This document shows, piece after piece, positions 1-49,284 of a stretch of DNA of 49,284 nucleotides; the stretch's first letter is position 1; every line of letters starts with the position of its first letter. The notes under the pieces are model-generated. The model was not told the DNA's origin. It did no database searches and saw only the letters and a program-made list of their open reading frames with translations. The stretch is from positions 1-49,284 of the forward strand of contig JAFPBB010000010.1 in NCBI GenBank assembly GCA_017390585.1. The letters are read 5' to 3'. The stretch is from Tidjanibacter sp. (GTDB lineage: Bacteria > Bacteroidota > Bacteroidia > Bacteroidales > Rikenellaceae). Both the position numbers and the translations under genes were made by a program.

Positions 1-1557
1 AAGGAGTTTATGGTGCGTAACACCTATATCTATCCTCCAAAGTTCTCGATGAAGATTATCGCTGACATCTTCGAGTACACTTCGAAGAATATGCCTAAGT
101 TCAACTCGATTTCGATTTCGGGTTACCATATGCAGGAGGCAGGTGCTACCGCTGACATCGAGTTGGCATACACCTTGGCTGACGGTTTGGAGTACTTGCG
201 TGCAGGTATCGACGCAGGCATGTCTGTTGATGCTTTCGCACCACGCTTGTCATTCTTCTGGGCTATCGGCATGAATCACTTCATGGAGATTGCCAAGATG
301 CGTGCAGCTCGTATGTTGTGGGCAAAGATTGTTAAGCAGTTCAACCCCAAGAACCCCAAATCGCTCGCATTGCGTACCCACTGCCAGACTTCGGGTTGGT
401 CGCTCACCGAGCAGGATCCCTTCAACAACGTTGGTCGTACGGCCATCGAGGCTATGGGCGCAGCTCTGGGCCACACCCAGTCGCTCCACACCAACGCTCT
501 CGACGAGGCTATTGCACTGCCCACCGACTTCTCGGCTCGTATTGCTCGTAACACCCAGATCTACATCCAGGAGGAGACCAACGTTTGCCGCTCGGTTGAC
601 CCCTGGGCAGGTTCCTACTATGTTGAGAGCCTCACCAACGAGATCGCACACAAGGCTTGGGCACACATCCAGGAGATTGAGAAACTCGGCGGTATGGCCA
701 AGGCTATTGAGACCGGTATTCCTAAGATGCGTATCGAGGAGGCTTCGGCTCGCAAGCAGGCTTGGATCGACTCGGGTGAGGAGATCATCGTGGGTCTGAA
801 CCGCTACCGTCTGGAGAAAGAGGCTCCCATCGACATCTTGGCTGTGGACAACACCGCCGTACGTGAGAGCCAGGTTAAACGCCTCCAGGAGCTCCGCGCT
901 GGCCGCGACGAGGCTGCCGTACAGAAAGCTTTGGCTGCCATCACCGAGGCTGTTAAGACCAAGACCGGCAACCTCCTCGAGCTCGCAGTTGAGGCCGCTA
1001 AGGTGCGCGCTTCCTTGGGCGAGATTTCGGACGCTTGCGAGGTTGTTGTAGGCCGCTACAAAGCAGTTATTCGTTCCATCTCCGGTGTATATTCGAGCGC
1101 TATGAAGAATGATGCAGATTTCGCAAAGGCAAAAGAGATGGTTGATGAGTTCGCAAAACGCGAGGGTCGTCAGCCCCGTATTATGATTGCCAAACTTGGT
1201 CAGGACGGCCACGACCGTGGTGCAAAGGTTGTTGCAACCGGTTATGCCGACCTCGGCTTCGATGTAGATATGGGTCCCTTGTTCCAGACTCCCGAGGAGG
1301 CTGCCAAGCAGGCTGTTGAGAACGACGTTCACGTTGTTGGCGTATCGTCGCTCGCAGCAGGTCACCTCACCCTCGTTCCCCAGATCATCGCCGAGCTCAA
1401 GAAGTTGGGCCGCGAGGATATCGTGGTAGTTGTGGGTGGTGTGATTCCCGCACAGGACTACGAGGAGCTCTATCAGGATGGTGCTGCAGCCATCTTTGGC
1501 CCCGGTACCCCTGTGGCTACCGCAGCTCAGAAGATTATGGAGATCCTCAGCGAGTAG
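1..1557 (+). CDS. mutB: Methylmalonyl-CoA mutase large subunit, 3' part
   Basis: Adenosylcobalamin-dependent interconversion of succinyl-CoA and (R)-methylmalonyl-CoA, used by Bacteroidales to make propionate from succinate. The gene runs in from the left edge: the first three codons (K-E-F) are already in frame and precede the family motif [10 protein letters not shown], so the ATG at 10 is internal. About 518 of some 715 residues are present. Visible are the TIM-barrel active-site block [11 protein letters not shown] with the catalytic-type His at window residue 127, and the C-terminal B12-binding domain with D-G-H-D-R-G at 402-407 (the His is the lower cobalt ligand), then V-G-V-S-S-L and V-V-V-G-G. 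The small subunit mutA is presumably just upstream, outside the window. Leucine codons in the first 300 bp favour TTG and three of the four CATG sites found in the window lie there. Confidence 0.97.
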
Positions 1558-1596
1558 TCGCTACCTCTCTGTGTAACCCAGACGTTGCACTTCGAT

Positions 1597-1644
1597 AAAC
1601 CCCTGCCACGGTTACGAAAGTAAACCCGGCAGGGGTTTTCTTTT
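1597..1644 (+). terminator. Intrinsic terminator of mutB
   Basis: An 11-bp perfect stem (1597-1607 with 1628-1638, arms AAACCCCTGCC and GGCAGGGGTTT) with a 20-nt loop, followed by a T-rich run. It lies 40 bp after the mutB stop. The remainder of the 310-bp gap to ferritin (1645-1812) is AT-rich and shows nothing else I can name. Confidence 0.85.
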
Positions 1645-1812
1645 GCGCTTTGTTTTTGGCCACCTACCATACTATATATATGCGCGCGAGGAGAACGATG
1701 TAGTGTGCTATCATCGCTATTGGAATTGAGGGGTGTGTTCTTATAAGTTTTACTTATGGTTGAATCGGGTAATATCATAGTGGCAAAGAGTATCAAATGA
1801 GAAAAATTGCAT

Positions 1813-1820
1813 TATCTTTG
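1813..1820 (+). promoter_or_regulatory. -7 box of ferritin promoter
   Basis: TATCTTTG matches the Bacteroidota -7 consensus TAnnTTTG. No clear TTTG -33 box is present 19 bp upstream. The start would lie near 1827, giving a leader of about 40 nt before the ferritin ATG. Confidence 0.6.
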
Positions 1821-1867
1821 TAATGCAGAAAGCAAAATAAGAATAACTAATTAAAAAACTCAATACT

Positions 1868-2398
1868 ATGAAAAAGAACATCAGCGACCGCCTCGTAGCG
1901 GCTATCAACGACCAGATCAACGCCGAACTTTGGTCGGCATATCTCTACCTCTCGATGTCGATGGACCAGGAGGCTAAGGGTAACAAGGGCTTTGCAAACT
2001 GGTTCTACATCCAGTTCCAGGAGGAGCAGGACCACGCACGCATCTTTATGAATATGCTCAACTCGCGTGGCGCGGAGGTGAAACTCCAGCCCATTGCTGC
2101 TGTGGACACCGAGTGGGCAACCCCTCTGGCTGCTTGGGAGAAGACCCTCGAGCACGAGCAGGTGGTGACCGCACGCATCAACAACCTTATGGCTATCGCC
2201 AAAGAGGAGAGGGACTACGCCTCGGAGAGCACCCTCAATTGGTTTGTGGATGAGCAGGTTGAGGAGGAAGAGAATGCACGCGACATCATCGACATCCTCG
2301 AGAAGATTGGCGACAACAAGTATGGTCTCTATGAGTATGACAAGGAGCTTGCAGCCCGTGTCTACACCACTCCTTCGCCCTTGGCAACTGCCGAGTAG
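1868..2398 (+). CDS. ftnA: Non-haem bacterial ferritin
   Basis: Cytoplasmic 24-mer iron store with ferroxidase activity. The 176-residue length is usual for FtnA. Ferroxidase-centre residues are all in place: Glu20, Tyr27, Glu53, His56, Glu97 and Gln130, with further acidic residues at 129 and 132-134. The sequence H-E-Q-V-V-T-A-R-I-N around 96-105 is the typical helix C. It is a single-gene transcript: terminators flank it (1597-1644 and the weaker 2438-2482) and it has its own -7 box at 1813. The ATG is preceded by an AT-rich stretch with no Shine-Dalgarno sequence. Iron or oxygen-stress control is likely from family knowledge, but no operator is visible. Confidence 0.95.
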   Translation: MKKNISDRLVAAINDQINAELWSAYLYLSMSMDQEAKGNKGFANWFYIQFQEEQDHARIFMNMLNSRGAEVKLQPIAAVDTEWATPLAAWEKTLEHEQVVTARINNLMAIAKEERDYASESTLNWFVDEQVEEEENARDIIDILEKIGDNKYGLYEYDKELAARVYTTPSPLATAE

Positions 2399-2437
2399 CA
2401 ACTCTCTGAGAACCTGAATTTAGCACGATAAATTGTG

Positions 2438-2488
2438 GAGCGAGTCACTCTCCTGCCAGAGGTAGGCGAAGGACTCGCTCCCTGTTTG
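2438..2488 (+). terminator. Possible terminator after ferritin
   Basis: A 10-bp perfect inverted repeat (GGAGCGAGTC at 2438-2447, GACTCGCTCC at 2473-2482) with a 25-nt loop. The following sequence is only weakly T-rich, so it may be a poor terminator or an mRNA 3' stabiliser. Confidence 0.5.
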
Positions 2489-2556
2489 TGTGGCGGCTCC
2501 GAGGGCGGAGGACGGAAATTTTCGCGGCCAGATGTGGGCACAAACGAAATAATAAG

Positions 2557-2564
2557 TATCTTTG
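2557..2564 (+). promoter_or_regulatory. -7 box of PBP1A promoter
   Basis: TATCTTTG, identical to the ferritin -7 box and a full match to TAnnTTTG. It is 22 bp before the ATG, so the leader would be short (about 16 nt). The -33 box is not evident. Confidence 0.6.
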
Positions 2565-2586
2565 TGGATAATAAACCCCAAAAGTT

Positions 2587-5013
2587 ATGAAAAAATACAA
2601 GGAACTGACTAAGGCACAAAAGGTTACGCTGTGGTTTTGGACCATCCTGCTTGTGCCTACACTTGCAGTGCTCACCCTTCTTGTTCTCACCAATGCGGGC
2701 ACCTTCGGTAAGTTGCCCTCTTTTGAGGAACTCGAGAATCCGAAGAGTAATCTCGCTACGGAGATCTACTCGGAGGACGGTGTGCTGCTCGGTCAGTACT
2801 ATGTTCAGAATCGCTCCTATGTGGACTACGAGGAGATCTCGCCCGCGCTCGTGGCGGCTCTTATAGCCACCGAGGACGAGCGTTTCCACTCCCATTCGGG
2901 CATCGACTTCATCTCCTTGGCCCGCGTGGGAATCAAGACCATCGCCCTCGGCGATAGCGGTCAGGGTGGCGGCTCGACCATCACACAGCAGCTGGCAAAG
3001 AACCTCTTCCCGAGGGATACGACCCACTACAACTCCAAGGTGGCTCGTATGGGTAAGCTCGTGATTGCCAAATTCAAGGAGTGGATTACCGCCGTGAAAC
3101 TCGAGCACAACTACACCAAGGAGGAGATTGTGTCGATGTATTTCAACACCGTGTTCTTCGGCTCCAACTCCTATGGTATCAAGGCCGCAGCCAAGACTTT
3201 CTTTGGCAAGGAGCCCCACGAAATCAATGTGCAGGAGGCGGCAGTGTTGGTGGGTGCGGTGAATGCCCCCACTCGCTACAGCCCCGTGCGTAACCCCAAG
3301 AACTCCTTGGCAAGGCGCAATACGGTGATGTCGCGTATGGCCAAGAGCGGCTACATCACCACCGAGCAGCTCGACTCGCTCAAGGAGCTGCCCATAGAAC
3401 TCAACTTCTCGACCTCCTCACACAACGAAGGCTTGGCGACCTACTTCCGCGAGATGATAAGGATGACGATGACCTCGCCCAAGCCCACCCGCAATATGTA
3501 CTACACCAAGTATGACTATGAGAAGGAGGTGGAGCGCTGGGAGTCCAATCCGCTCTATGGATGGTGCTTGAAGAATAAGAAGGCCGACGGCACGGAGTAT
3601 AACATCTACCGCGACGGACTCAAAATCTACACCACACTCAACTCCACGATGCAACGCTACGCCGAGGAGGCTGTGCAGAAACAACTCAGCGAGCAGATTC
3701 AGCCCGCAATGGACAAGCAGTGGAAGGAGACGGGGGTGCTCTTCACCGACCTCGAGCAGGAGGAGATAGACAAAATCGTGGGTAGGGCAATCCGCTACTC
3801 GGACCGCTACCGCGATATGTCCAATGCGGGATTCTCCCAGAGCGAAATCGACAAGGCATTCCGCACAAAGGTCAAGACCAAAATCTTCACCTTCAAGGGT
3901 GAGGTGGATACGCTCATCACACCTCTCGACTCCATCCTCCACCACAAGCGCATTATGCGTGCGTCGCTGATGGCTGTCGACCCCCACAATGGTCACGTTA
4001 AGGCCTACGTCGGAGGTCCCTCGTTCCGCTACTTCAAGTATGATATGGCCAAGCAGGGCAAGCGTCAGGTGGGCTCCACCATCAAGCCCTTCATCTACAC
4101 CTTCGCCTTCGACCACCTCGGCTACAACCCCTGTACGATGGTGCCCAACCTACCCGTCACCATCGAGACCTACACGGGCGAGGCGTGGACTCCCAAGGAG
4201 GCCGGCACAAAGGTTGTCTACGACGGCGAGATGTATCCCCTCAAGTGGGGTATGGCGCGCAGCCGCAACAACTACTCGGCTTGGATTATGAAGCAGGCCA
4301 ACCAGCCCGCAGCGGTGGCCGACTTCATCCACAATATGGGCATCCTCAGCTATGTCGACCCCGTCAATGCCATCTGCCTCGGCACACCCGATGTGAGCCT
4401 CTTTGAGATGGTGGGAGCCTACTCCACATTTGCCAATCGCGGTGTCCACACGGAGCCTATCTTTGTGACCCGCATCGAGGACCGCCACGGCAACGTCTTG
4501 GCCGAGTTTTCGCCCACAAGCACAGTGGCCATCAGTGAGCATACCGCCTACACGATGGTGGATATGTTGCGCACGGTGGTGCAGCGCGGTACGGGTGTGC
4601 GTATGGGCTGGGCCTATGGTATGACCGACGTGGAGGTGGGTGGTAAGACAGGTACCTCCCAGGAGAACCGCGATGCGTGGTTTATGTGTGTGGCACCCAA
4701 CCTCGTTGGAGGCGTTTGGGTGGGCGGCGAGGACCAAAGTGTCCACCTCTCGGCCAAGGGTGAGGGCTCGGTTGTGGCGCTCCCCATCTATGGCGAGTTC
4801 CTCAAGAAGGTGATGGCCAACGGCTCGCTGGGCGTCACCCGTGAGGATACGTTCCATCGTCCTGCAGGTGCCAAGGAGTATGACTGCTGGGATGGGTCCA
4901 TCTCCATTGAGGATGTGCAGTTCGACGAGAACGGCGAGATCATTGAGGAAGATGTGGTGGAGGAGAGTCAGCCCACCGACGTCATCTTCGAGGAGGAGGA
5001 TGAGTTCTTCTAA
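2587..5013 (+). CDS. mrcA: Class A penicillin-binding protein (PBP1A type)
   Basis: Bifunctional peptidoglycan glycosyltransferase and DD-transpeptidase of the cytoplasmic membrane, polymerising and cross-linking lipid II. It has 808 residues, within the family range. A short cytoplasmic tail is followed by one transmembrane helix at about 13-35. The glycosyltransferase domain shows E-D-E-R-F with the catalytic Glu at 96, and G-G-S-T-I-T-Q-Q near 127-134. The transpeptidase domain carries all three penicillin-binding motifs: S-T-I-K with the acyl-acceptor Ser at 497 and Lys at 500, S-R-N at 559-561, and K-T-G at 687-689. The C-terminus is an acidic, probably disordered tail ending E-E-D-E-F-F. 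It is the only long reading frame between ferritin and asd. Confidence 0.96.
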   Translation: MKKYKELTKAQKVTLWFWTILLVPTLAVLTLLVLTNAGTFGKLPSFEELENPKSNLATEIYSEDGVLLGQYYVQNRSYVDYEEISPALVAALIATEDERFHSHSGIDFISLARVGIKTIALGDSGQGGGSTITQQLAKNLFPRDTTHYNSKVARMGKLVIAKFKEWITAVKLEHNYTKEEIVSMYFNTVFFGSNSYGIKAAAKTFFGKEPHEINVQEAAVLVGAVNAPTRYSPVRNPKNSLARRNTVMSRMAKSGYITTEQLDSLKELPIELNFSTSSHNEGLATYFREMIRMTMTSPKPTRNMYYTKYDYEKEVERWESNPLYGWCLKNKKADGTEYNIYRDGLKIYTTLNSTMQRYAEEAVQKQLSEQIQPAMDKQWKETGVLFTDLEQEEIDKIVGRAIRYSDRYRDMSNAGFSQSEIDKAFRTKVKTKIFTFKGEVDTLITPLDSILHHKRIMRASLMAVDPHNGHVKAYVGGPSFRYFKYDMAKQGKRQVGSTIKPFIYTFAFDHLGYNPCTMVPNLPVTIETYTGEAWTPKEAGTKVVYDGEMYPLKWGMARSRNNYSAWIMKQANQPAAVADFIHNMGILSYVDPVNAICLGTPDVSLFEMVGAYSTFANRGVHTEPIFVTRIEDRHGNVLAEFSPTSTVAISEHTAYTMVDMLRTVVQRGTGVRMGWAYGMTDVEVGGKTGTSQENRDAWFMCVAPNLVGGVWVGGEDQSVHLSAKGEGSVVALPIYGEFLKKVMANGSLGVTREDTFHRPAGAKEYDCWDGSISIEDVQFDENGEIIEEDVVEESQPTDVIFEEEDEFF

Positions 5014-5084
5014 GAAGCGAAATAACAAAGTTCAACAATGCACAATTGTCGGTTGACGACAGATAGAAAAGGATAAAAATAGGT

Positions 5085-6086
5085 ATGAACGTAGCAATAG
5101 TTGGCGCAAGCGGCGCCGTAGGTCAGGAGTTTCTCCGCATCCTTGCCGAGAGAGAGTTCCCCATAGATAATCTCTACCTCTTTGGTAGCAGCCGTTCCGC
5201 GGGTACGGAGTATGAGTTCCGCGGAGAGAAATACACCGTTAAACTTCTCCAGCACAACGACGATTTCAAGGGTATCGACGTGGCCTTTGTCTCCGCAGGT
5301 GGCTCCACCTCGAAGGAGTTTGAGAAGACCATCACCAAGCACGGCACCATTATGATCGACAACTCGAGTGCCTTCCGTATGGATGCCGACGTGCCCCTGG
5401 TGGTGCCCGAGGTCAATCCCGAGGATGCCAAGAATGCTCCTCGCAGGGTCATTGCCAACCCCAACTGCTCCACCATCCAGATGGTGGTTGCCCTCGCCGC
5501 GCTCGAGAAGATTGCACACATCACTCGCGTGCACGTTGCCACCTATCAGGCTGCCAGCGGTGCGGGTGCTATGGGCATTGCCGAGTTGGAACAGCAGTAC
5601 ACCGAGATTGCCGAGGGCAAGGAGCCCACGGTGAGCAAGTTTGCCTACCAGCTGGCAGGTAATGTCATCCCCCACATCGACGTATTTGCCGAGGAGGACT
5701 ACACCAAGGAGGAGCTGAAGATGTTCTATGAGACCCAGAAGATTATGCACTCCGACATAGCCGTGTCGGCCACCTGTGTGCGCGTGCCCGTAGCTCGTGC
5801 CCACTCGGAGGCCATCTGGGTGGAGTTTGAGCGCCCCGTGTCGGTGGAGGAGGCTCGCAAGGCTTTCTTGGAGGCGGAGGGCATTGTTGTAGAGGACGAG
5901 CCTGCCGAGAAGAGGTATCCTATGCCCCTCTTTGTGGCCGAGACCACTCCCGTATTTGTGGGCCGACTCCGCAAGGATATTGCCAACCCCAATGGTCTGA
6001 CCTTCTGGTGTGTGGCCGACCAAATCCGCAAGGGTGCGGCTCTCAATGCTGTGCAGATTGCCGAGAAACTCTTTGGTACCCGATAG
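5085..6086 (+). CDS. asd: Aspartate-semialdehyde dehydrogenase
   Basis: NADPH-dependent reduction of aspartyl phosphate to aspartate semialdehyde, the branch point to lysine/diaminopimelate, threonine and methionine. The 333-residue protein begins with the Rossmann motif V-G-A-S-G-A-V-G-Q. The catalytic Cys is 128 in N-P-N-C-S-T-I-Q, and the active-site His is 240 in R-A-H-S-E-A. Substrate-binding signatures Q-A-A-S-G-A-G and N-V-I-P-H-I-D are present. It lies 71 bp after the penicillin-binding protein, a plausible functional pairing because diaminopimelate feeds peptidoglycan, though it may have its own promoter. A clear terminator follows at 6154. Confidence 0.96.
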
Positions 6087-6153
6087 GAACTCCGAGAGGG
6101 GGGCGCACTCCGTTGATGGGGGCGGTGACCCCCGGAAATCAAATTATGAGGTG

Positions 6154-6183
6154 TGAGGTGTCTCCTTGCACCTCATTTTTTTG
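6154..6183 (+). terminator. Intrinsic terminator of asd
   Basis: A 7-bp stem (TGAGGTG at 6154-6160, CACCTCA at 6169-6175), 8-nt loop, and seven T residues directly after it. Confidence 0.85.
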
Positions 6184-6284
6184 CGCCATTAAGTGGTTGT
6201 GTGCCAAGATGTTGTTGGCGAAAGCAAAAAAAAGTTGAAAAAAATTTTCACTCTCGTGCAACGTTTTGCCCGACTTTTGCATCT

Positions 6285-6415
6285 ATAGTGCAAGGAGGTC
6301 GCCTTTCTCTCCATTCGGCGGCCAGCCTACCAACTTCAAATAATCGGGGGATGGGATGTGTGGCCCACCTCCTCATCAAAAGGGTCTGCGCTCTCTTTGC
6401 AGGCCCTTTTTCTTT
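6285..6415 (+). ncRNA. Candidate small structured RNA
   Basis: This stretch lies between the asd terminator (6154-6183) and a second plus-strand terminator (6378-6417) and contains no believable gene. It can fold as a closed multiloop: AGGAGGT (6293-6299) pairs with ACCTCCT (6367-6373), CGCC (6300-6303) with GGCG (6317-6320), and GCCA (6321-6324) with TGGC (6361-6364). The near-consensus -7 box GACTTTTG (6272-6279) would start transcription near 6286. It lacks the SRP RNA core (GGAAGGAAGCA-like), so it is not 4.5S RNA. I do not recognise a family. The structure is inferred by hand, and the region could simply be a 3' readthrough segment. Confidence 0.35.
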
Positions 6416-6417
6416 TT
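6378..6417 (+). terminator. Second intrinsic terminator between asd and greA
   Basis: A 12-bp stem with G-T pairs (6378-6389 with 6399-6410; arms end CTGC and GCAG), 9-nt loop, then a T-rich tail. asd already has a terminator 200 bp upstream, so this one would end a separate transcript. Confidence 0.75.
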
Positions 6418-6421
6418 GAGC

Positions 6422-6458
6422 GGGGGAGGGTGTGTTGAGTGGGGGAGGGTGTGTTGAG
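6422..6458. repeat. 18-bp direct repeat, two copies
   Basis: The sequence GGGGGAGGGTGTGTTGAG occurs at 6422-6439 and again at 6441-6458, one base apart. It is G-rich and non-coding, between two convergent terminators. Confidence 0.8.
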
Positions 6459-6481
6459 AGGGAGGAGGCAGATGTGTGGAT

Positions 6482-6518
6482 AAAAAAAAGTGGCTCCCAT
6501 CTCTCGATGGAAACCACT
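6482..6518 (-). terminator. Intrinsic terminator of greA
   Basis: On the minus strand a 13-bp stem with G-U pairs (6518-6506 with 6501-6489), a GAGA tetraloop and a run of eight T residues. It lies 36 bp after the greA stop. Confidence 0.88.
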
Positions 6519-6553
6519 CGATGTAGCTCTGCGGATAGGTGCAGAGTGGAGCA

Positions 6554-7030
6554 TTAGATGGAGATGTCCAGAATCTCAAACTCCATAAGACCTACGGGCA
6601 CCTGAACCTCCACCTTGTCACCCTTCTTGTGACCGAGCAGGGCGTGACCAATGGGGGTCTCCACGGAGAGTTTGCCAGCCATAAGGTCGGCCTCGTGGTC
6701 GCCAACGAGGGTGTACTCCATCTCGGAGCCGGTGTTGACGTTGCGGATGCGAACTTTGTTGAGAATCTGCACCTTGCTCTTGTCGAGGTGCGACTCGTCG
6801 ATAATGCGTGCGTTTGCGAGAGTGATCTCCATACGCATAATTTTCTCTTCGAGATTGCGCTGTGCCTCTTTGGCTGCGTCATACTCGGCGTTTTCGGAGA
6901 GGTCGCCTTTGTCGCGTGCCTCTGCGATAGCCTCGGCTGCTTTGGGTCTTTCGACGATACGCAGTTGGTCCAATTCGGCTTTCATTTTGTTGTAACCTTC
7001 TTTGGTCAAAACAATGGATTCGTGTGCCAT
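6554..7030 (-). CDS. greA: Transcription elongation factor GreA
   Basis: Binds the RNA polymerase secondary channel and stimulates cleavage of backtracked RNA. The length of 158 residues is exact for the family. The N-terminal coiled coil carries the tip motif D-K-G-D-L-S-E-N-A-E-Y, with the conserved acidic residues Asp43 and Glu46. The C-terminal FKBP-like domain ends P-V-G-L-M-E-F-E-I-L-D-I. It is transcribed alone, from a consensus promoter (7180-7210) through a leader of about 140 nt to the terminator at 6482. The long leader is unusual beside the short leaders of neighbouring genes. Confidence 0.96.
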   Translation of the reverse strand: MAHESIVLTKEGYNKMKAELDQLRIVERPKAAEAIAEARDKGDLSENAEYDAAKEAQRNLEEKIMRMEITLANARIIDESHLDKSKVQILNKVRIRNVNTGSEMEYTLVGDHEADLMAGKLSVETPIGHALLGHKKGDKVEVQVPVGLMEFEILDISI

Positions 7031-7102
7031 AGATTTACTCTGTGTTTTTTTTATGTTGTTTAATATATTTTTAACCTTTGGAGGGCCGCTTCATACAGCA
7101 CG

Positions 7103-7135
7103 AAAAAAATATGAATTCCGACCTACAGGAGGTCG
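7103..7135 (-). promoter_or_regulatory. Hairpin and U-run in the greA leader
   Basis: In the minus-strand leader, CGACCT and AGGTCG (7135-7130 with 7124-7119) form a 6-bp stem with a 5-nt loop. Nine nucleotides later comes a run of seven U (7109-7103). It looks like a weak attenuator. In E. coli the greA leader also contains a terminator that yields small RNAs; an equivalent here is inference. Confidence 0.3.
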
Positions 7136-7179
7136 AAACCCAGTAACAAATTCTGCTCATTGAGCCCTCAAATATGCCA

Positions 7180-7210
7180 CAAAGGTAACCATCTTTTTCT
7201 AATAAACAAA
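7180..7210 (-). promoter_or_regulatory. greA promoter, full -33/-7
   Basis: On the minus strand TTTG (7210-7207), a 19-bp spacer, then TACCTTTG (7187-7180). Both boxes match the Bacteroidota primary-sigma consensus. The predicted start is near 7173. Confidence 0.85.
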
Positions 7211-7218
7211 ATTTGTCT

Positions 7219-7226
7219 TAAATTTG
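7219..7226 (+). promoter_or_regulatory. -7 box of cls promoter
   Basis: TAAATTTG matches TAnnTTTG, with the imperfect -33 sequence TTTC at 7196-7199 after a 19-bp spacer. The -33 region falls between the two greA promoter boxes, so the divergent promoters overlap face to face. Confidence 0.65.
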
Positions 7227-7243
7227 TAACCTCACTACCATAA

Positions 7244-8710
7244 ATGACACCTATGTTTCTGATTAATGGCGCGTTTGGCTTCACGGACCTCTGGACGATA
7301 GTATCGTTCACCTACACCATTTTTGTGGTTCTGATGGTGATTGCCGTCATCGCCGAACGACGCGATCCGGTCAAGACTTTGGCCTGGATTATGGTCATCA
7401 CAATGTTCCCCGTGGGAGGAATGATTCTCTTCCTTGCCTTCGGCCGCAACCACCGCAAGGAGCGTACCTTTATGCAGAAAGAGCTCTTCGACAACGAAAT
7501 TGTGGGCAAGATTTGTGGCGACCAACTGTGCGAGCTGCCGGCCAGCGAGGAGTTTAATAGTGCCGACCGTAGCCTTATCACCCTCCTGCTCAACAACTCT
7601 CGCGCACCACTGATGATTCACAATAGGGTGCAATTCTACAACGACGGCAAGGAGTGCTTCTCGAGTCTCTTTGAGGATTTGAGGAGTGCCACGGAGTCTA
7701 TCCACATCGAGTTCTTTGCCATTGAGAGTGGGCCGCTCTTCGAGCAGATGTTTGAGATTCTGACCGAGAAAGTTGCACGGGGCGTGGAGGTGAGAATCAT
7801 CTACGACAGCGTTGGTAGCCGACGACTCCGCAGGCGCGATGTGGTGCGTATGAAGAGTGTTGGGATTGATGTGCGCTGCTTTATGCCGGTCTTTTTCACC
7901 CGCTTTTCGAGCCTGGCCAACTACCGCGACCACCGCAAAATCGTTGTCGTCGACGGCAAGGTGGCCTTTACGGGCGGAATGAACATTGCCGACCGCTATG
8001 TGGAGGGACTGCGAGGTGGAGTGTGGCGCGATGTCCACATTCGTGTGGAGGGTGAGTCGGTGGCTATGCTCCAGTCGGTCTTTGTGGTCGATTGGGCCTT
8101 TGTTTCGGATGGCGAGCGGCTCGAAGATAGTCGCTACTTCCCCGCCTCGGAGGTGAGTGAGGTCTGCCCTATGCAGATTCTCTCCTCGGGACCCGATTCC
8201 CCCTATGCCTCCATCAAGCACTCCTATTTTGCGGCCATCTCCAAGGCGCAGAAATATGTCTACATCTCCACCCCCTATCTGATGCCCGACAATGCGATTC
8301 TCACAGCGCTCCACGTTGCGGCGCTCAGTGGTGTGGATGTGAGGATTCTCATCCCCGTCAGGGGCGACAATGCCGTGGTGGCTTGGGCGGGCTTTGCCTA
8401 TGTCGATTCGCTCTTGGAGGTGGGTGTGAAGGTCTACCTCTACCGCGTCGGTTTCAACCACTCCAAATTCATCATCATCGACGACGAACTCTGCTCCATA
8501 GGCTCTGCCAACCTCGACTATCGCAGCTTCGAGGATGACTTCGAGGTGCAGGCTCTCATCTACGACAATGCCACCACTTGCCGCCTCCGCGACCAATTCA
8601 TCGACGACCTCCGCGATTCGGAGGAGATAACGCCCCAAAATTGGGCTCAACGTTCGCGCACTTCGAAGATTATGGAGCCCATAGCAAAGCTCCTTGCACC
8701 GCTCTTTTAG
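7244..8710 (+). CDS. cls: Cardiolipin synthase, phospholipase D family
   Basis: Condenses two phosphatidylglycerols (or related lipids) to cardiolipin at the inner membrane. The 488-residue length is typical. Two N-terminal transmembrane helices (about 14-36 and 46-66) are followed by two HKD motifs: H-R-K-I-V-V-V-D with His230, Lys232, Asp237, and H-S-K-F-I-I-I-D with His406, Lys408, Asp413. The expected G-G-M-N and G-S-A-N-L-D-Y-R-S-F follow the first and second motif respectively. It is monocistronic, from the -7 box at 7219 (leader about 12 nt) to a very strong terminator at 8730. Confidence 0.95.
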   Translation: MTPMFLINGAFGFTDLWTIVSFTYTIFVVLMVIAVIAERRDPVKTLAWIMVITMFPVGGMILFLAFGRNHRKERTFMQKELFDNEIVGKICGDQLCELPASEEFNSADRSLITLLLNNSRAPLMIHNRVQFYNDGKECFSSLFEDLRSATESIHIEFFAIESGPLFEQMFEILTEKVARGVEVRIIYDSVGSRRLRRRDVVRMKSVGIDVRCFMPVFFTRFSSLANYRDHRKIVVVDGKVAFTGGMNIADRYVEGLRGGVWRDVHIRVEGESVAMLQSVFVVDWAFVSDGERLEDSRYFPASEVSEVCPMQILSSGPDSPYASIKHSYFAAISKAQKYVYISTPYLMPDNAILTALHVAALSGVDVRILIPVRGDNAVVAWAGFAYVDSLLEVGVKVYLYRVGFNHSKFIIIDDELCSIGSANLDYRSFEDDFEVQALIYDNATTCRLRDQFIDDLRDSEEITPQNWAQRSRTSKIMEPIAKLLAPLF

Positions 8711-8729
8711 CTCGTGTCGTTCAATATGG

Positions 8730-8767
8730 CAGAGGGGTTTTCCGTGCGAAAACCCCTCTGTTTTTTT
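8730..8767 (+). terminator. Intrinsic terminator of cls
   Basis: A perfect 13-bp stem (8730-8742 with 8748-8760), 5-nt loop, and seven T residues. It is among the strongest terminators in the window. Confidence 0.95.
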
Positions 8768-8811
8768 CAACTCGAGGTGGGAGTGTGGTGTTGCCTCGCC
8801 CCCCCGAGAGG

Positions 8812-9435
8812 TTAGAAGAAGAGTCCGAAGTTGATTTGCACGATGCCGTCGTGCTTGACATCCACTCGCTTGTGTTGCTGTGCCACCCTCACTTCCGAGG
8901 TGGTCTGCTCCAGATAGCCCACATACCTCAGGTCCAAGCATACCCCATCGAATTCCACACCTACGCCACCCATTGCGGCAATGTCGTTGTCGTTGAAGTT
9001 CACCCTCAGGGGAGTGGAGCCTCCCCCCTTGGAGTATTGCTTGGAGCCCAAACGCCACACGGGGCCGCCGAAGAGCCTCACGTTGCCGAATTTGAATCCC
9101 ATAAGTATGGGTAGTTCAATGCGGTAGCACTTCAAGGTCTTGTACTCTTTGGGTTGTGAGGGCGACTTGATGCCAAAGACATAGTCGCGCTGGGAGAACT
9201 GCAGCTCGGGCTGGATGTAGATGAATGTTGGGATGGAGAGGCGCAAAAAAATGGCAGCCTGATAGCCACCCACTCTGTCCCCGGCAGGCTCAAGAGTTGC
9301 CCCGTCGATACCGATGGAGTCGAACTGATAGCTGCCTGTTGCAATGCCAATGCGCCCGCCCAAGGAGAGGGGCTGCGCTTTTGTCGCCCACGTCACAAAG
9401 AGTGAGCCGACGAGGAGAAACACCAAACGTTTCAT
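8812..9435 (-). CDS. Small outer-membrane beta-barrel protein
   Basis: A secreted protein of 207 residues. The start was set at 9435 because that Met opens a clear signal peptide (M-K-R-L-V-F-L-L, cleavage after A-T-K-A-Q at about 21), while an upstream in-frame Met at 9528 adds a charged segment with no such role. The mature part alternates hydrophobic and polar residues and ends in aromatic Phe (F-G-L-F-F), as outer-membrane barrels do. It fits the general outer-membrane beta-barrel (PorT-like, eight-strand) families of Bacteroidota, but I cannot assign a role. No promoter box was seen in the 220-bp gap upstream (9436-9655). Confidence 0.8.
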   Translation of the reverse strand: MKRLVFLLVGSLFVTWATKAQPLSLGGRIGIATGSYQFDSIGIDGATLEPAGDRVGGYQAAIFLRLSIPTFIYIQPELQFSQRDYVFGIKSPSQPKEYKTLKCYRIELPILMGFKFGNVRLFGGPVWRLGSKQYSKGGGSTPLRVNFNDNDIAAMGGVGVEFDGVCLDLRYVGYLEQTTSEVRVAQQHKRVDVKHDGIVQINFGLFF

Positions 9436-9655
9436 AATCCGTGAGAGAGTAAAAAAATGTAAAACAAAAGAGAACTTACATCTCCACGAATTGCAAATGA
9501 TGTGCCGCGAACTCTCTGCGTTTGCCACTTTGCGATGGCACCTGCGATTTTATTCTCTCTGCTCCGAGGTGCTGTGTGGAACGGCTCTCATCTCACATAT
9601 TTTGGGTCGGATTGCGTGTGGGGCGTACACCCTGTATCCCCGTCGCTGCGCGTGG

Positions 9656-10477
9656 CTACTCTGTGGGGCCGAGAAGAGTGGTGCGGAGGGTGGTGTTGAA
9701 GTCGTGTAGGAGGGTTGCATTGCGTCGTTGGGTGAGCAGTCGGGCACGCTCTTGGCCCAGGAAGTAGGTGGTGCTGAGGCCGCCACAGCCCACAATCCAA
9801 CCACTAAGCCATTGGCCCGCAATCATTTCGCTCACTGCAAAGGTGCCCAGCACTGCATTGGCCGATAGCGACACAAGGGCGCTCCACGCCTCGCCAGCAT
9901 AGAACTGTCCCAAGCCAGGGATGAGGCTCAACCACCACGCCAACTCGGGGTTGCGAAGATGTGGGGTGTGGGCATAGAGGTGGTCTATCTGTTGTTTCAC
10001 TTCGTCGGATGCGGGGTGGGTGTCGAGGTGTCGTCTGGCTGCCGACTCGGAGCGTTGCCAATCTCCCTTTTGTGCCGCTGCAAGCGCCTCCACGAGGGCC
10101 ATAGTCTCCCCCATTTGCTCCGGTGCCACATAGAAGCCGGCCTCGTCGATGGCAGCCAGAGAGGTGTCGAACTCCCCTGCGAGGTAGCCACACAGGGCCT
10201 TCTGATAGTAGTAGTCGGCGAGTTCTTGCTCTCCGAGTGCATAGGTGTGGATGCGTCCCAACTCCTCGAGAGCCTCGCTGTAGAGCCCTTGTTGTTTACG
10301 CACAGAGGCCTTGGCCGCCACAGCTTGGTTGTGGGTGGCGGCATCTTTGGCGGCGTAGATTTCGCGCTCCAAGGCGAGTGCTCGGAGGTCCCAATCGGGT
10401 GTCTGCCCGTTAGTCGAAAAGCTCGCGCAGAGGAATATGGATGCTGTACATAACAGCCTCGCGATTGATCTCTTCAA
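9656..10477 (-). CDS. Helical-repeat membrane protein with P-G-L-G-Q motif (second paralogue)
   Basis: Last gene of a four-gene operon. I place the start at a TTG (10477), because it opens a good signal peptide (M-K-R-S-I-A-R-L-L) ending near S-T-N-G-Q. A GTG at 10510 is the longer alternative. Either start overlaps the end of the previous gene, by 68 nt with the TTG. The protein of about 273 residues has a periplasmic alpha-helical, TPR-like region (about 30-175) and then a hydrophobic segment beginning S-L-I-P-G-L-G-Q-F-Y-A-G-E with two or three membrane helices. The same arrangement and motif occur in the gene just upstream, so the two are tandem paralogues. The hydrophobic part resembles TM2/DUF5683-type segments; the function is unknown. 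Confidence 0.78.
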   Translation of the reverse strand: MKRSIARLLCTASIFLCASFSTNGQTPDWDLRALALEREIYAAKDAATHNQAVAAKASVRKQQGLYSEALEELGRIHTYALGEQELADYYYQKALCGYLAGEFDTSLAAIDEAGFYVAPEQMGETMALVEALAAAQKGDWQRSESAARRHLDTHPASDEVKQQIDHLYAHTPHLRNPELAWWLSLIPGLGQFYAGEAWSALVSLSANAVLGTFAVSEMIAGQWLSGWIVGCGGLSTTYFLGQERARLLTQRRNATLLHDFNTTLRTTLLGPTE

Positions 10478-11330
10478 AATGCTGATAGTAGACTCTGACG
10501 CTGGCCACACTGCCGAAGATGTTGCTCACATAGAGCAACGAGGCAATGGTGCCATAGGTTATTGTTCGAACGTTTGCGGGGCTCTCGGCCTTGGCCCAGC
10601 TTGTGGCTGTGAGGGCGGCGAAGGCACCCACGGCCATAAAGGTTGCCACACCTTCGCTCACCTGCCCGGCATAGATTTGACCCAGACCGGGCACTATGGC
10701 CGACGCGAGGCCTGCCACCCACTCTTTGGGCTGACGAGGTGGGCCTGCTGCGGCACTCTCGAGCTCGCGCTGATGGCCCGCAACAATGGGGTGGGAGTAG
10801 GTGAAGAGGCTCTTCTGGCGGGCATACTCCTCGTGGTCACCCTCCAGAAGTGCCACGCCTCCGCGGTGGAGGGCAAGGAGTTGGTCGTGTTGGGAGGCCT
10901 CGGGGCTCTGGGCAAAGAGGTCGAGCCTCTGGCGTGCCCCCTCGGTGTCGCCCCCGAGCAGATGACATACGGAGCTGTAGAAACTGCTTCCTGCGTAGAA
11001 CGGCGAGCCCTGAGTCACGCTGCCAAATGCGAGGGCTGCCGTGTCGAACTGCTTGTTGTGGTAGCTCACGAGCCCCTTCAGGTAGCGCAGCGAGTCGATG
11101 GATGGGGTGGAGTAGAGCTCCTCGGCAGGGAGGTGGTCCACAAGTGTTGTGGCGTCGCGCAGGAGACCCTTGCCCACAAGGTAGCGGCCAAACTCATAGT
11201 CACCGCGTGCGTGCCTTGCGATGGATTCCGCTGCCGGCACTTTGGCGCTCACAATCGCTCCGCTCTCTTGCCCTTTGGCTCCGAGTGCAAAAAGTGTGAG
11301 CAGGGCTACTATGACAAAGGCTCTTCTCAT
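10410..11330 (-). CDS. Helical-repeat membrane protein with P-G-L-G-Q motif (first paralogue)
   Basis: A 306-residue protein with a signal peptide (M-R-R-A-F-V-I-V-A-L-L, ending near G-A-K-G-Q), a helical TPR-like region (about 35-190) and a C-terminal hydrophobic part starting A-I-V-P-G-L-G-Q-I-Y-A-G-Q with membrane helices at about 215-245 and 255-275. Its ATG overlaps the stop of the YidD-like gene as ATGA, indicating translational coupling, and its 3' end overlaps the next paralogue. The P-G-L-G-Q-x-Y-A-G motif is shared by both. Topology suggests a periplasmic solenoid on a membrane anchor; its role in the envelope is inferred from the neighbours only. Confidence 0.8.
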   Translation of the reverse strand: MRRAFVIVALLTLFALGAKGQESGAIVSAKVPAAESIARHARGDYEFGRYLVGKGLLRDATTLVDHLPAEELYSTPSIDSLRYLKGLVSYHNKQFDTAALAFGSVTQGSPFYAGSSFYSSVCHLLGGDTEGARQRLDLFAQSPEASQHDQLLALHRGGVALLEGDHEEYARQKSLFTYSHPIVAGHQRELESAAAGPPRQPKEWVAGLASAIVPGLGQIYAGQVSEGVATFMAVGAFAALTATSWAKAESPANVRTITYGTIASLLYVSNIFGSVASVRVYYQHFEEINREAVMYSIHIPLRELFD

Positions 11331-11758
11331 TGGCGGTAACGTTTGGGGTCGTCACACACCAACCCTTGTTCGTTTTGGGGTGCGGTGGTGCGACCTATTT
11401 TGGTGTTTCTCACTGTGCGGTCGAGACCAAAGAGGAGGGCGGGCAGGGTGCCATACTCGGCCACGAGGGCTCGGAAGTAGTCGATGTTGGTCTCGGTGTA
11501 GCCCCCAGGAGTGGTGATGTCGGGTGCCAAGTGGTTCTCCCACACCCACAAAGCACCGCTCGCAGCGTGGTAGAGTGGGGAGATGGTGCTCCGTCCGGGC
11601 TCAATGCCATAGGGGTGGCTCCTGTCGCCACGCGGAGCCTCGAAGCTCACCTCGCGTAGCAGTTCCAGATCGCTCCTCTCTTGCCCCCACGCCGAGTGGG
11701 TGGCCATCAGCAGGAGGGTGGTCACAAGCAGAAGTAGTCTATGTGGTGTGCAGTGCAT
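11327..11758 (-). CDS. Secreted, degenerate YidD-like protein
   Basis: A 143-residue protein with a signal peptide (hydrophobic core at 8-19, then S-A-W-G-Q). The segment L-W-V-W-E-N-H-L-A-P followed by Y-T-E-T-N-I-D-Y-F-R-A-L and E-Y-G-T-L-P-A-L-L-F-G-L-D-R-T-V-R-N lines up, by eye, with the YidD (membrane insertion efficiency factor) pattern Y-Q-K-Y-I-S-P, C-S-x-Y-A-x-E-A, H-G-x-x-K-G-x-x-L-x-x-x-R-I-x-R-C. The family cysteines are replaced (Asn, Asn). It starts directly after the LolA-like gene (no gap) and ends in an ATGA overlap with the next. The YidD relation is inference; a plain lineage-specific secreted protein is the alternative. Confidence 0.72.
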   Translation of the reverse strand: MHCTPHRLLLLVTTLLLMATHSAWGQERSDLELLREVSFEAPRGDRSHPYGIEPGRSTISPLYHAASGALWVWENHLAPDITTPGGYTETNIDYFRALVAEYGTLPALLFGLDRTVRNTKIGRTTAPQNEQGLVCDDPKRYRQ

Positions 11759-12469
11759 CTATTTGGCAAAGAGTGTGTTGGGGTCGATATCAATGCGTTT
11801 GGCGTCGGCGGGCACCTGCCAATCGAACATCTCGGAGTTGGCTTCGGCATCGAAGAGCAGATTGGAGTAGGTGGAGAGCCTCACCAACGAGTCGCGCTTG
11901 GGGCTATACTCAATCTCCGTGATTCGCATAGGCATAGGAATCCTGCCATACTCATACTGTGCAAAGTAGACTTTGCGTAGGGTTTCGCCCTTGTTGTTGT
12001 AGTAGATCATACAGATGGGCAGTTGGCCGCGGAAGGCCAGCTCCACCTTTGCCACTCCGGCGCTACTCTTGGGCACGAAGGTCTTGATAATCATTCCATT
12101 CTCGTGGCGCACCTCGCTCTGCGTGTAGCCATAGGCGGGCAGGGCCATATCGACATAGCCGCCCGAGGCAAAGAGCGACACAAGCTCCTTGGTGGAGGCC
12201 ATCTCGGAGTCGTTGATCACCACCACCTCGCCTGTGGAGGGGGTGTAGATGCGCATCTCGCCGAGAGCATTGGAGTGGGTTATGGAGTGTTTGGGCGAGT
12301 GTTGCTCCACCACCATACGTCCGTCGGGGTGGAGGTAGATGCTGCGCTCGCTGGTCTTCTTCTTGCCGTCGGCCACCTGCACACTCTTCTCGTCAATCGA
12401 GAGGCGCACTTGTGCTGCTGCGACTATGGGGGCGAGGAGTAGTAGGGTGGCGAGTAGGTGTCGTTTCAT
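11759..12469 (-). CDS. LolA-like periplasmic protein
   Basis: First gene of the four-gene operon. The start at 12469 was chosen for its signal peptide (M-K-R-H-L-L-A-T-L-L, ending A-A-A-Q); an upstream in-frame start at 12568 would run through the preceding gene's terminator. The mature protein of about 216 residues is beta-rich, with paired-strand patterns such as Y-L-H-P-D-G-R-M-V-V and M-R-I-T-E-I-E-Y-S-P-K-R-D. It ends F-D-W-Q-V-P-A-D-A-K-R-I-D, much like the last strands of LolA/LolB lipoprotein-carrier folds (F-x-F-x-V-P-x-G-A-x-V-I). Lipoprotein or lipid handling in the periplasm is therefore likely, but the match is by pattern only. Confidence 0.7.
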   Translation of the reverse strand: MKRHLLATLLLLAPIVAAAQVRLSIDEKSVQVADGKKKTSERSIYLHPDGRMVVEQHSPKHSITHSNALGEMRIYTPSTGEVVVINDSEMASTKELVSLFASGGYVDMALPAYGYTQSEVRHENGMIIKTFVPKSSAGVAKVELAFRGQLPICMIYYNNKGETLRKVYFAQYEYGRIPMPMRITEIEYSPKRDSLVRLSTYSNLLFDAEANSEMFDWQVPADAKRIDIDPNTLFAK

Positions 12470-12493
12470 ATTGTTGATGTGGTGTGTGTGCAA

Positions 12494-12528
12494 CAAAAAA
12501 ATGGGGCGAAGAGTTGTCTTCGCCCCAT
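12494..12528 (-). terminator. Intrinsic terminator of the TM2 gene
   Basis: A perfect 12-bp stem (12528-12517 with 12512-12501), 4-nt loop, and seven T residues on the minus strand. It stands only 24 bp before the ATG of the LolA-like gene. Confidence 0.9.
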
Positions 12529-12559
12529 AAAGGTAGTAACTTTTGTGGATTAGAACAAA
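12528..12559 (-). promoter_or_regulatory. Possible promoter of the LolA-like operon
   Basis: On the minus strand TTTG (12559-12556), a 20-bp spacer, then TACCTTTA (12535-12528), one mismatch from TAnnTTTG. It sits across the end of the TM2 gene and touches its terminator, so the operon would start inside that hairpin. No other promoter fits in the 24 bp downstream. Confidence 0.4.
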
Positions 12560-12960: not shown

Positions 12961-13044
12961 AATGCGTTATTTTTTAGGTTAAACTTGTGTTTCTGGCAAG
13001 TGGGAGTCGCCACAATCCGTGGGTGGGTGGCAGGCTACTGAGTA

Positions 13045-13052
13045 CAAATATA
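13045..13052 (-). promoter_or_regulatory. -7 box of the TM2 gene
   Basis: TATATTTG on the minus strand, a full match to TAnnTTTG, about 85 bp before the ATG. There is no clear -33 box. The rest of 12961-13223 holds no other feature I can support. Confidence 0.5.
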
Positions 13053-13258: not shown

Positions 13259-13302
13259 CTCTCGGCTCTCCCGCGGTGGGGGAGCCTATGTGTGTTGTGC
13301 CA

Positions 13303-47570: not shown

Positions 47571-47578
47571 CAAATATG
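47571..47578 (-). promoter_or_regulatory. Possible -7 box of the acyl-CoA ligase
   Basis: CATATTTG on the minus strand, one mismatch from TAnnTTTG, 6 bp before the ATG at 47564. No -33 box was found. If real, the transcript starts at or next to the start codon. Confidence 0.35.
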
Positions 47579-47730
47579 TTCTTGTGTTCTTGAATTTTGT
47601 TCTTCTCTTACTCTGGTCCCGATGGGCCATTTCATAAGCAGTGCGAAAGTAAGTCCAAAGTTGGAGTTATCCTCGTTTTGCTCTCAAAATGGTCCGCCAT
47701 CCAACCGTGCCAAAAGCTTGCTGTGGTACA

Positions 47731-47768
47731 AAATAGAAACGCCCCAAAGCACTGAACTTTGGGGCGTT
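47731..47768 (-). terminator. Intrinsic terminator of aspA
   Basis: A perfect 12-bp stem (47768-47757 with 47749-47738), 7-nt loop, and a T-rich tail on the minus strand, 50 bp after the aspA stop. Confidence 0.88.
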
Positions 47769-47818
47769 GGTCTATGGTTTATGGCATCCTATTTCTACGA
47801 TGCCCAATATGCAATTCC

Positions 47819-49255
47819 TTACTGTTTGGGGAACTTGCGGGGTTTCACCATATTCTCGGGTTTGAGAAGGTTGTCGAGCTCCTCGCGGCTCATAAGATTC
47901 CTCTCCAGAACCAGGTCGTAGATACCCTTGCCGGTCTCGAGAGCCTCTTTGGCCAACGAAGTGGAGGTCTCATAGCCAATGTAGGGGTTGAGTGCGGTAA
48001 CAAGGCCGATGGAGTTGTAGACCAAGCGTTTGCAAACCTCCTCGTTGGCGGTGATGCCAACAACGCATTTCTCCCTGAGGGTGTTCATAGCGTTGATGAG
48101 CATATCCACGTTCTCAAACATCGAGTGAACGATGATGGGCTCCATCACGTTGAGCTCGAGCTGAGCAGCCTCACTTGCGAAGGTCACGGTAAGGTCGTTG
48201 CCGATAACCTTGAAGGCAACCTGGTTCACAACCTCGGGAATAACGGGGTTCACCTTGCCGGGCATAATCGACGAGCCGGGCTGCATAGGAGGCAGGTTGA
48301 TCTCATTGAGACCGCAGCGGGGACCGCTCGACATCAGACGGAGGTCGTTGCAAATCTTCGAGAGCTTCACTGCCAACCTCTTCATAGCCGACGAGTTCAT
48401 AACGAAGGCGCCGGTGTCGTTGGTAGCCTCAATCATATTGGGCGACACAACCATAGGAAGGCCGGTAACCTCTGCCAAATATTTGCAGCACAATGCGGGG
48501 TAGTCGGGGTCGGAGTTGATGCCGGTACCGATGGCGGTAGCACCCATATTCTGCTCATAGAGGAGGGCTTTGTTCTGCTCGAGGCGGTCGATCTCCTCTG
48601 CGAGGGTGGCGGCGTAGGCGGTGAACTCCTGACCGAGGGTCATAGGCACTGCATCCTGAAGCTGGGTGCGACCCATCTTGATCACATCTTTGAACTCCTC
48701 ACCCTTTGCTGCGAAGGCGTCGATGAGCTGTTTGAGGGCCTCCTGAAGTTTGGTGATGCTCCTCACGGTAGCCACTTTCACCGAGGTGGGATAGGCGTCG
48801 TTGGTCGACTGCGAGAGGTTGACGTGGTTGTTGGGGTGGCAGAATTTGTACTCACCTTTCTCGTGGCCGAGGAGCTCGAGAGCGCGGTTGGCGATAACCT
48901 CGTTGGCGTTCATATTGGTCGAGGTGCCTGCGCCGCCCTGAACCATATCCACCACGAAGTGTGCGTCGAGTTTGCCCTCTGCAACATCCTTGCAAGCCTT
49001 GACGATTGCCTCAGCAACCTCTGCGTCCATAAGCTCGAGGTCGCGGTTGGCCATAGCTGCTGCGGCCTTAACCTCTGCGAGAGCTTTGATAAACTCGGGG
49101 AACATACAGAGTTTCACCCTCGAGATGTGGAAGTTCTCCACTGCGCGCATAGTCTGCACGCCGAAGTAGTACTCTACGGGAATCTGTTTGTAACCCAGAA
49201 GGTCGTGCTCCTCGCGGGTCTTACCCGAGAGCTGAGCCATTGTAATGTCCATCAT
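47819..49255 (-). CDS. aspA: Aspartate ammonia-lyase
   Basis: Cytoplasmic tetramer converting L-aspartate to fumarate and ammonia; in anaerobic Bacteroidales it feeds fumarate reduction. The 478-residue length is family-typical. The fumarase/aspartase signature G-S-S-I-M-P-G-K-V-N-P occupies 327-337, containing the mobile catalytic Ser loop. Further signatures are S-T-N-D-A-Y-P-T, G-R-T-Q-L-Q-D-A and G-A-G-T-S-T-N-M-N. Two Met codons near the start (49255, 49252) are both possible. The 29 bp to the window edge (49256-49284) show no promoter. Ligase and aspA are not obviously co-transcribed, since a terminator lies between them. Confidence 0.96.
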   Translation of the reverse strand: MMDITMAQLSGKTREEHDLLGYKQIPVEYYFGVQTMRAVENFHISRVKLCMFPEFIKALAEVKAAAAMANRDLELMDAEVAEAIVKACKDVAEGKLDAHFVVDMVQGGAGTSTNMNANEVIANRALELLGHEKGEYKFCHPNNHVNLSQSTNDAYPTSVKVATVRSITKLQEALKQLIDAFAAKGEEFKDVIKMGRTQLQDAVPMTLGQEFTAYAATLAEEIDRLEQNKALLYEQNMGATAIGTGINSDPDYPALCCKYLAEVTGLPMVVSPNMIEATNDTGAFVMNSSAMKRLAVKLSKICNDLRLMSSGPRCGLNEINLPPMQPGSSIMPGKVNPVIPEVVNQVAFKVIGNDLTVTFASEAAQLELNVMEPIIVHSMFENVDMLINAMNTLREKCVVGITANEEVCKRLVYNSIGLVTALNPYIGYETSTSLAKEALETGKGIYDLVLERNLMSREELDNLLKPENMVKPRKFPKQ

Positions 49256-49284
49256 AGTTTTTTGTTTGATTTTAGGTTTGTTAT

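What the first reader, a model, noticed from the sequence alone, without database searches (positions are those of the whole stretch)
1..49284. Near-total absence of CATG across 49 kb
Reading every line for CATG, I found only four: 219-222, 270-273, 282-285 and 33178-33181. A random sequence of this length would hold about 190. Codons before internal Met end in T (GAT-ATG, CGT-ATG, AAT-ATG), although the same genes otherwise favour C (GAC, AAC, ATC). On minus-strand genes CAT is nearly always followed by A. This looks like strong, old selection against a palindrome, as expected from a restriction-modification system of NlaIII type or long exposure to one.
Basis: partly seen in the sequence, partly recalled or inferred. 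Interest (0 to 1): 0.8.

Follow-up and report, generated by a model that had tools for sequence, protein, structure and literature searches.

The report
Gut bacterium has purged CATG genome-wide
This gut bacterium and its sister species have removed almost every copy of the four-letter word CATG from their DNA, most likely because a DNA-cutting defence enzyme that targets CATG has long circulated among them.

Summary
The depletion is genome-wide: 31 seen, 2,343 expected in a 563 kb sample. The genome is an 84.7%-complete Rikenellaceae/Tidjanibacter-like assembly.

Fifteen of 23 genus members are depleted, two of them only partly; eight have normal CATG (0.90-1.13). The 14 depleted ones with a marker form one clade (support 1.000). 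CATG is avoided by a different silent change in each reading frame, which fits selection and not one mutational bias. Survivors gather in tRNA genes, at an AAA/RloB gene pair and in a divergent gene tract.

Three clade members carry an NlaIII-type system: ICEA-family endonuclease plus D12 methyltransferase. The window's own assembly shows no ICEA and no methyltransferase of four families searched. The driver is thus missing from the assembly or very recently lost (crude silent-site estimate). This is a known phenomenon, restriction-site avoidance, in a very strong form.

The parts
1..49284 (.). whole window: near-complete absence of CATG (4) and complete absence of CTAG (0)
286..33177 (.). 32.9 kb without a single CATG
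219..285 (+). three of the four CATG (219, 270, 282), all wobble C + ATG in the methylmalonyl-CoA mutase gene
210..309 (+). divergent tract: 73% DNA identity to the sister species G005 against 87-96% in the other 100-base bins of the gene; probable import from a CATG-tolerant relative (or a contig-edge assembly fault)
   Evidence: the reading as an import is inference
33178..33181 (+). fourth CATG, wobble C before ATG in the minus-strand gene 32467-35355 (carboxypeptidase-regulatory-like domain)
10..1557 (+). methylmalonyl-CoA mutase (partial), used as phylogenetic marker
19823..23206 (+). transcription-repair coupling factor (Mfd-like), used as phylogenetic marker; 0 CATG here, 8-23 in the eight normal relatives

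Best explanation
The genome has been under long, strong selection against CATG by an orthodox Type II restriction-modification system of NlaIII type. The endonuclease cuts any CATG that the methyltransferase has missed, so each site is a standing risk and mutations that destroy sites are favoured until almost none is left. Shown: the depletion, its genome-wide reach, its single-clade distribution within the genus, silent avoidance by three different base choices, and an ICEA/NlaIII-family endonuclease with a D12 methyltransferase in three sister species. Inferred: that these enzymes recognise CATG, that this kind of system drove the purge, and that in this organism the system is either present but missing from the 84.7%-complete assembly or was lost only recently. 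The systems are low-GC cassettes with different neighbours in G013 and G017, which suggests that they move between species.
For: CATG 31 of 2,343 expected in 563 kb of this genome. Depleted (0.00-0.15) in 13 of 23 genus members, partly in two more (G010 0.36, G031 0.59), normal (0.90-1.13) in 8. Of the 15, 14 are in the tree and form one clade, support 1.000; G009 has no marker and six of the 14 (G008, G030-G034) rest on Mfd alone. PF05315 (ICEA) hits with E 1e-112 to 1e-118 in G012, G013, G017, each with a D12 methyltransferase 88-100% identical to the G013 one and a small second methyltransferase beside it (for G013 and G017; for G012 from partial matches at C77 only). 0 of 295 order genomes pass the ICEA cut-off. 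Wobble C before ATG 11/1,885 vs 73.4% elsewhere; CAT before G 5/731 vs 15.2%; xCA before TG 0/586 vs 15.1%. Outside called genes 14 of 162 expected; C before ATG starts 1 of 423. 4 of 30 CATG lie in 875 bases of tRNA genes (P 2e-7).
Against: No ICEA, and no D12, N6_N4, N6_Mtase or C5 methyltransferase, in this assembly, nor in G005, which is 99% complete and also depleted (0.03). Several assemblies without the system are at least as depleted as the carriers (G000 0.01, G005 0.03, G009 0.03, G030 0.03, G034 0.00, against 0.04-0.07 in G017, G012, G013). Within the genus 3/15 vs 0/8 is not significant. A distant (34%) homolog of the D12 enzyme lies in normal G001. Specificity of the three systems is inferred from family membership only.
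Confidence: 0.82

Rival explanations
1. Relic (a sub-case of the best explanation): the system was lost and the depletion is only its fading trace.
For: No ICEA found in 12 of 15 depleted assemblies. G031 and G010 sit inside the clade with partly recovered CATG (0.59, 0.36), as expected after loss. Rusinov et al. describe avoidance without a resident system as traces of lost ones (PMC4687349, abstract and passages).
Against: In this genome C before ATG is only 0.6%, which allows at most about 0.008 units of silent turnover since pressure ended, against about 1.0 on the whole path to G005 (205 of 828 wobble C/T sites differ; a crude neutral model). So loss, if any, was very recent.
Confidence: 0.35
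2. The system is present in the organism but absent from the assembly, because low-GC, variable cassettes are lost in assembly or binning (the other sub-case of the best explanation).
For: The four cassettes measured (CATG type in G013 and G017, CTAG type in G017, DpnII type in G014) are 35.6-37.3% GC in genomes of 52-53%. G011's D12 gene is cut at a contig end. [quoted passage not shown]
Against: G005 is 99% complete in about 30 contigs and shows none of the four methyltransferase families searched, although CATG, CTAG, GATC and ACGT are all strongly depleted in it. Other methyltransferase families were not searched.
Confidence: 0.55
3. Mutational bias, such as deamination of methylated cytosine in CATG, removed the sites.
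For: In the C|ATG frame the replacement is T for C.
Against: In the CAT|G frame sites are avoided by CAC and in the xCA|TG frame by other third bases, which are not C-to-T changes on either strand. Known CATG methylation is on adenine (recalled).
Confidence: 0.03
4. General structural or regulatory dislike of the word, unrelated to restriction.
For: CTAG is low in all 23 genus members (0.00-0.19), and is widely avoided without systems (PMC4687349, passage).
Against: For CATG, eight close relatives have normal counts.
Confidence: 0.05

Closest known systems
Avoidance of orthodox Type II restriction sites in host genomes (Rusinov et al. 2015, PMC4687349)
   Same: 4-base palindrome, strong under-representation, shared among close relatives whether or not the system is found.
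   Different: Far below that paper's threshold of 0.78: 0.019 by Karlin's measure on 182 kb of this genome (12 loci). The paper's main text does not hold the word CATG.
NlaIII / Helicobacter pylori iceA1-hpyIM CATG system
   Same: ICEA-family endonuclease next to a D12 methyltransferase in three sister species; iceA1 is 52% identical to NlaIII (PMC2749054, passage); hpyIM is called CATG-specific in a reference title of that paper.
   Different: Not found in the window's own assembly; a second small methyltransferase lies beside it in G013 and G017, and in G017 also a 379-aa ORF with a weak EVE match.
MjaI / BfaI CTAG systems
   Same: A MjaI-family endonuclease in G017 and G007, with an N6_N4 methyltransferase beside it in G017 and about 0.9 kb away in G007. 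M.MjaI and M.BfaI are given as homologs of a CTAG methyltransferase (PMC5867850, passage).
   Different: Only 2 of 23 genomes, one of them with normal CATG; CTAG is low everywhere in the genus, so the link to the CTAG deficit is weak.

Membership tests
Restriction-site avoidance by an orthodox Type II system | site under-represented beyond composition | tested here: met
   4/215 in window, 31/2,343 in the genome sample, Karlin 0.019-0.036
Restriction-site avoidance by an orthodox Type II system | site is a palindrome | tested here: met
   CATG; five palindromes are among the six lowest words of the 40-stretch sample
Restriction-site avoidance by an orthodox Type II system | cognate system in the same genome | tested here: not met
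   no ICEA, no homolog of the D12 enzyme, no methyltransferase of 4 families; assembly 84.7% complete, so absence from the organism is not shown
Restriction-site avoidance by an orthodox Type II system | cognate system in close relatives (trace or shared exposure) | tested here: met
   3 of 15 depleted, 0 of 8 normal genus members
Restriction-site avoidance by an orthodox Type II system | relatives outside the exposed lineage have normal counts | tested here: met
   8 genomes at 0.90-1.13, outside the clade
NlaIII-type CATG system (in G012, G013, G017) | ICEA/NlaIII-family endonuclease | tested here: met
   PF05315 E 1e-112 to 1e-118 over positions 1-218 of 218
NlaIII-type CATG system (in G012, G013, G017) | linked D12 adenine methyltransferase | tested here: met
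   PF02086 E about 1e-50; 88-90% identical to the G013 enzyme in G012 and G017
NlaIII-type CATG system (in G012, G013, G017) | recognition of CATG | not testable with these tools
   inferred from family and from depletion of CATG in carriers

The most novel reading that the evidence does not exclude
The CATG taboo is kept up at the level of the whole clade, not of single genomes: a pool of mobile, low-GC restriction cassettes (CATG, and likewise GATC, CTAG and perhaps ACGT) passes between species so often that most genomes lack the cassette at any moment yet stay purged, and only lineages that drop out of the exchange (G031, G010) regain sites.
Probability: 0.25. Interest if true: 0.65.

Novelty: new member of a known kind. 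Interest (0 to 1): 0.5.

Why it matters
One genus offers a graded series: eight species with normal CATG, thirteen almost purged, two partly recovered, and three of the purged ones with a matching system visible. That makes the rate at which restriction purges a genome, and the rate at which sites return after loss, measurable from silent sites. It also suggests that word counts can point to a defence system that a draft assembly lacks.

Tried and rejected
Chance or base composition: rejected. A feature of this contig only: rejected. Mutational bias: rejected by the three-frame test. A system in this genome: searched with PF01555, PF02086, PF02384, PF00145, PF05315, PF09568 and the G013 D12 protein, none found; other methyltransferase families, such as the Eco57I type, were not searched, and PF02086 was not run on G030-G034. 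ICEA carried by phages or plasmids: none in IMG/VR (one stretch matched a pattern, none was a relative) or in phage records; one weak plasmid match in Priestia. The D12 methyltransferase: 1 relative in IMG/VR, 58% identical, on a 527 kb contig (not followed). No solved structure matched the ICEA protein. The first ICEA search looked negative; it listed only three members of the genus, and the genus search corrected this. G005's lack of methyltransferases and its ACGT deficit (0.04) stay unexplained. Papers: eight searches showed no paper on CATG avoidance in Bacteroidales; one search found no paper at all, and searches listed only 15 of 48, 8 of 1,538 and 8 of 16. This covers only that open-access library and those terms. 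Of papers I saw: PMC4687349 abstract, passages and two sections; PMC2749054, PMC5867850 and PMC11247762 passages only; the rest in listings. Set aside: two masked stretches of this genome and two of relatives (all N); G009 is not in the tree for lack of a marker; relatives were sampled with 17-128 kb each, not whole. My gene caller is a simple codon model and misses genes (for example the AAA/RloB pair of L013), so its 'outside genes' class is not pure.
Full report
Observation. The expectation is 215 from an order-2 Markov model and 227 +/- 13.5 from dinucleotide shuffles; Karlin's measure gives 0.036. By observed/expected it is the second lowest of the 256 tetranucleotides.

Reach. Forty other stretches of the same assembly (517,614 bases, two stretches masked) hold 26 CATG for 2,123 expected and 18 CTAG for 1,068. 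With the window and a small rpoB locus the sample is 563 kb: 31 of 2,343 and 18 of 1,183. The five lowest palindromes of the 40 stretches are CATG, CTAG, GATC (0.34), CCGG (0.42) and GTAC (0.56).

Organism. Window genes match Bacteroidota families (BamG, GldE; that these point to Bacteroidota is recalled). The closest named records to the mutase gene are Tidjanibacter, Rikenellaceae, 'Alistipes sp.' and Bacteroidales assemblies, the best a sheep-colon one at 96% identity. The assembly is 1.75 Mb in 84 contigs and 84.7% complete. That the genus is Tidjanibacter is an inference: the contig of the record behind L204, named Tidjanibacter, has the same length (364,551) as contig C3 of genus member G001.

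Relatives. I sampled all 22 other genomes that the genus searches returned, 17-128 kb each. CATG observed/expected: G001 1.06, G002 1.13, G003 0.90, G004 0.95, G007 1.00, G011 1.01, G015 1.03, G016 1.03, that is 8 normal genomes. Depleted: G000 0.01, G005 0.03, G006 0.13, G008 0.15, G009 0.03, G012 0.05, G013 0.07, G014 0.08, G017 0.04, G030 0.03, G032 0.06, G033 0.05, G034 0.00 (0 of 83). Partly depleted: G010 0.36, G031 0.59. A tree from Mfd, RpoB and the mutase (G009 absent; G008 and G030-G034 with Mfd only) puts the 14 depleted or partly depleted genomes that it contains in one clade with support 1.000, and all 8 normal ones outside. So the purge most simply began once in this genus, and G010 and G031, nested inside, look like recoveries. 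In the Mfd gene the normal genomes carry 8-23 CATG and the depleted ones 0-1; G010 and G031 carry 5 each (G009 has no copy in the set).

How the sites went. In 439 genes of this genome called by my script, a wobble pyrimidine before an ATG codon is C in 11 of 1,885 cases, against 73.4% elsewhere. His is CAT before G in 5 of 731, against 15.2%. Codons of the xCN type end in A before TG in 0 of 586, against 15.1%. In the five normal relatives tested (G001, G007, G011, G015, G016) C before ATG is 66-92%, and in partly recovered G031 58%. The three frames need different base choices, so no single mutational bias explains them. Outside called genes CATG is 14 of 162 expected, and only 1 of 423 ATG starts has C before it.

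Survivors. Of 30 CATG in the stretches other than the rpoB locus, 4 are in tRNA genes, which make up 875 of 561,191 bases (P 2e-7); 3 of 18 CTAG are there too. Six more CATG and two CTAG lie within 453-2340 of L013, in or just behind an AAA_21 gene and an RloB gene, which I read as a recently acquired defence pair. Three of the window's four lie in a tract of the mutase gene where identity to G005 falls to 73% from 87-96%, which I read as imported DNA; a contig-edge assembly fault is possible. The rest are unexplained, among them one in rpoB where the sisters G005, G012, G013 and G017 have T and the normal relatives C.

The enzymes. Around the D12 hits of depleted species I found, in G013 and G017, an ORF of 226 aa with a full-length ICEA match (PF05315, E 1e-112 to 1e-114), a D12 methyltransferase of 334-335 aa and a second small methyltransferase. 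A genus-wide search found ICEA in G012, G013 and G017 only, of 23, and the D12 enzyme in the same three, with a 34% homolog in normal G001. ICEA passes the cut-off in 0 of 295 order genomes, with weak matches in 2. The proteins are 86-90% identical between carriers, the cassettes of G013 and G017 are 36% GC and their flanking ORFs differ, so they probably move. iceA1 of Helicobacter is an NlaIII relative and hpyIM is called CATG-specific (PMC2749054, passage and a reference title). Other systems fit other low words: DpnII-family in G014 (GATC 0.13), with a like-built locus in G030 (0.08) whose endonuclease I did not scan, and a MjaI-family enzyme in G017 and G007.

The gap. The window's assembly has none of the enzymes sought. 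Nor has G005, 99% complete. With a crude neutral model, 0.6% C before ATG means at most 0.008 units of silent turnover since pressure ended, against about 1.0 on the path between G000 and G005. In that model the pressure lasted until about now in evolutionary terms: the system is missing from the assembly, or was lost just now, or comes and goes. The same model gives G031 1.75 units since release, more than its whole path to G000 (1.28), so it is rough. G005, with CATG, CTAG, GATC and ACGT all low and no methyltransferase found, makes me favour missing or mobile cassettes over several recent losses. This is inference.

What is known. Rusinov et al. (PMC4687349; abstract, passages and two sections seen) report that only orthodox Type II systems cause avoidance, that sites of systems held by other strains of the species but not by the genome itself are under-represented in 43.3% of 1,930 cases, and that avoidance without a system can be a trace of a lost one. 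They also report that CTAG is low in 55.4% of control pairs whatever the systems, so I give the CTAG deficit little weight. The finding is a strong and well-resolved case of this known phenomenon.

Noticed in passing
1-49284: CTAG is absent altogether (0 of 111 expected); GATC, CCGG and GTAC are depleted about 2-fold.
   Followed up: partly
L080, L081, L275-L278 (G005) and stretches of G006, G031, G032, G034: ACGT is strongly avoided in G005 (0.04), G031 (0.02), G034 (0.07), G032 (0.15) and G006 (0.23) but not in most other members of the clade; G034 also nearly lacks GGCC and CGCG (both 0.03). No system was identified.
   Followed up: no
L013 163-2250: AAA_21 + RloB gene pair; six CATG and two CTAG lie in or just behind it, in a genome that otherwise nearly lacks both.
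   Followed up: partly
L211, L212, L226, L232, L272, L274: CATG is low (under 0.4) also in Bacteroidales that look more distant (81-86% mutase identity); of 80 named loci, low in 7 of 16 with ruminant or horse names in the title against 4 of 64 others (Fisher P 7e-4), not corrected for relatedness.
   Followed up: partly
L342 7965-10984: 527 kb IMG/VR contig with a D12 methyltransferase 58% identical to the G013 one; neighbouring ORFs look like further methylases by eye, not scanned.
   Followed up: no
L156, L160, L158: An N6_N4 methyltransferase of 321-349 aa without a visible endonuclease lies between similar ORFs in G012, G006 and G008.
   Followed up: no
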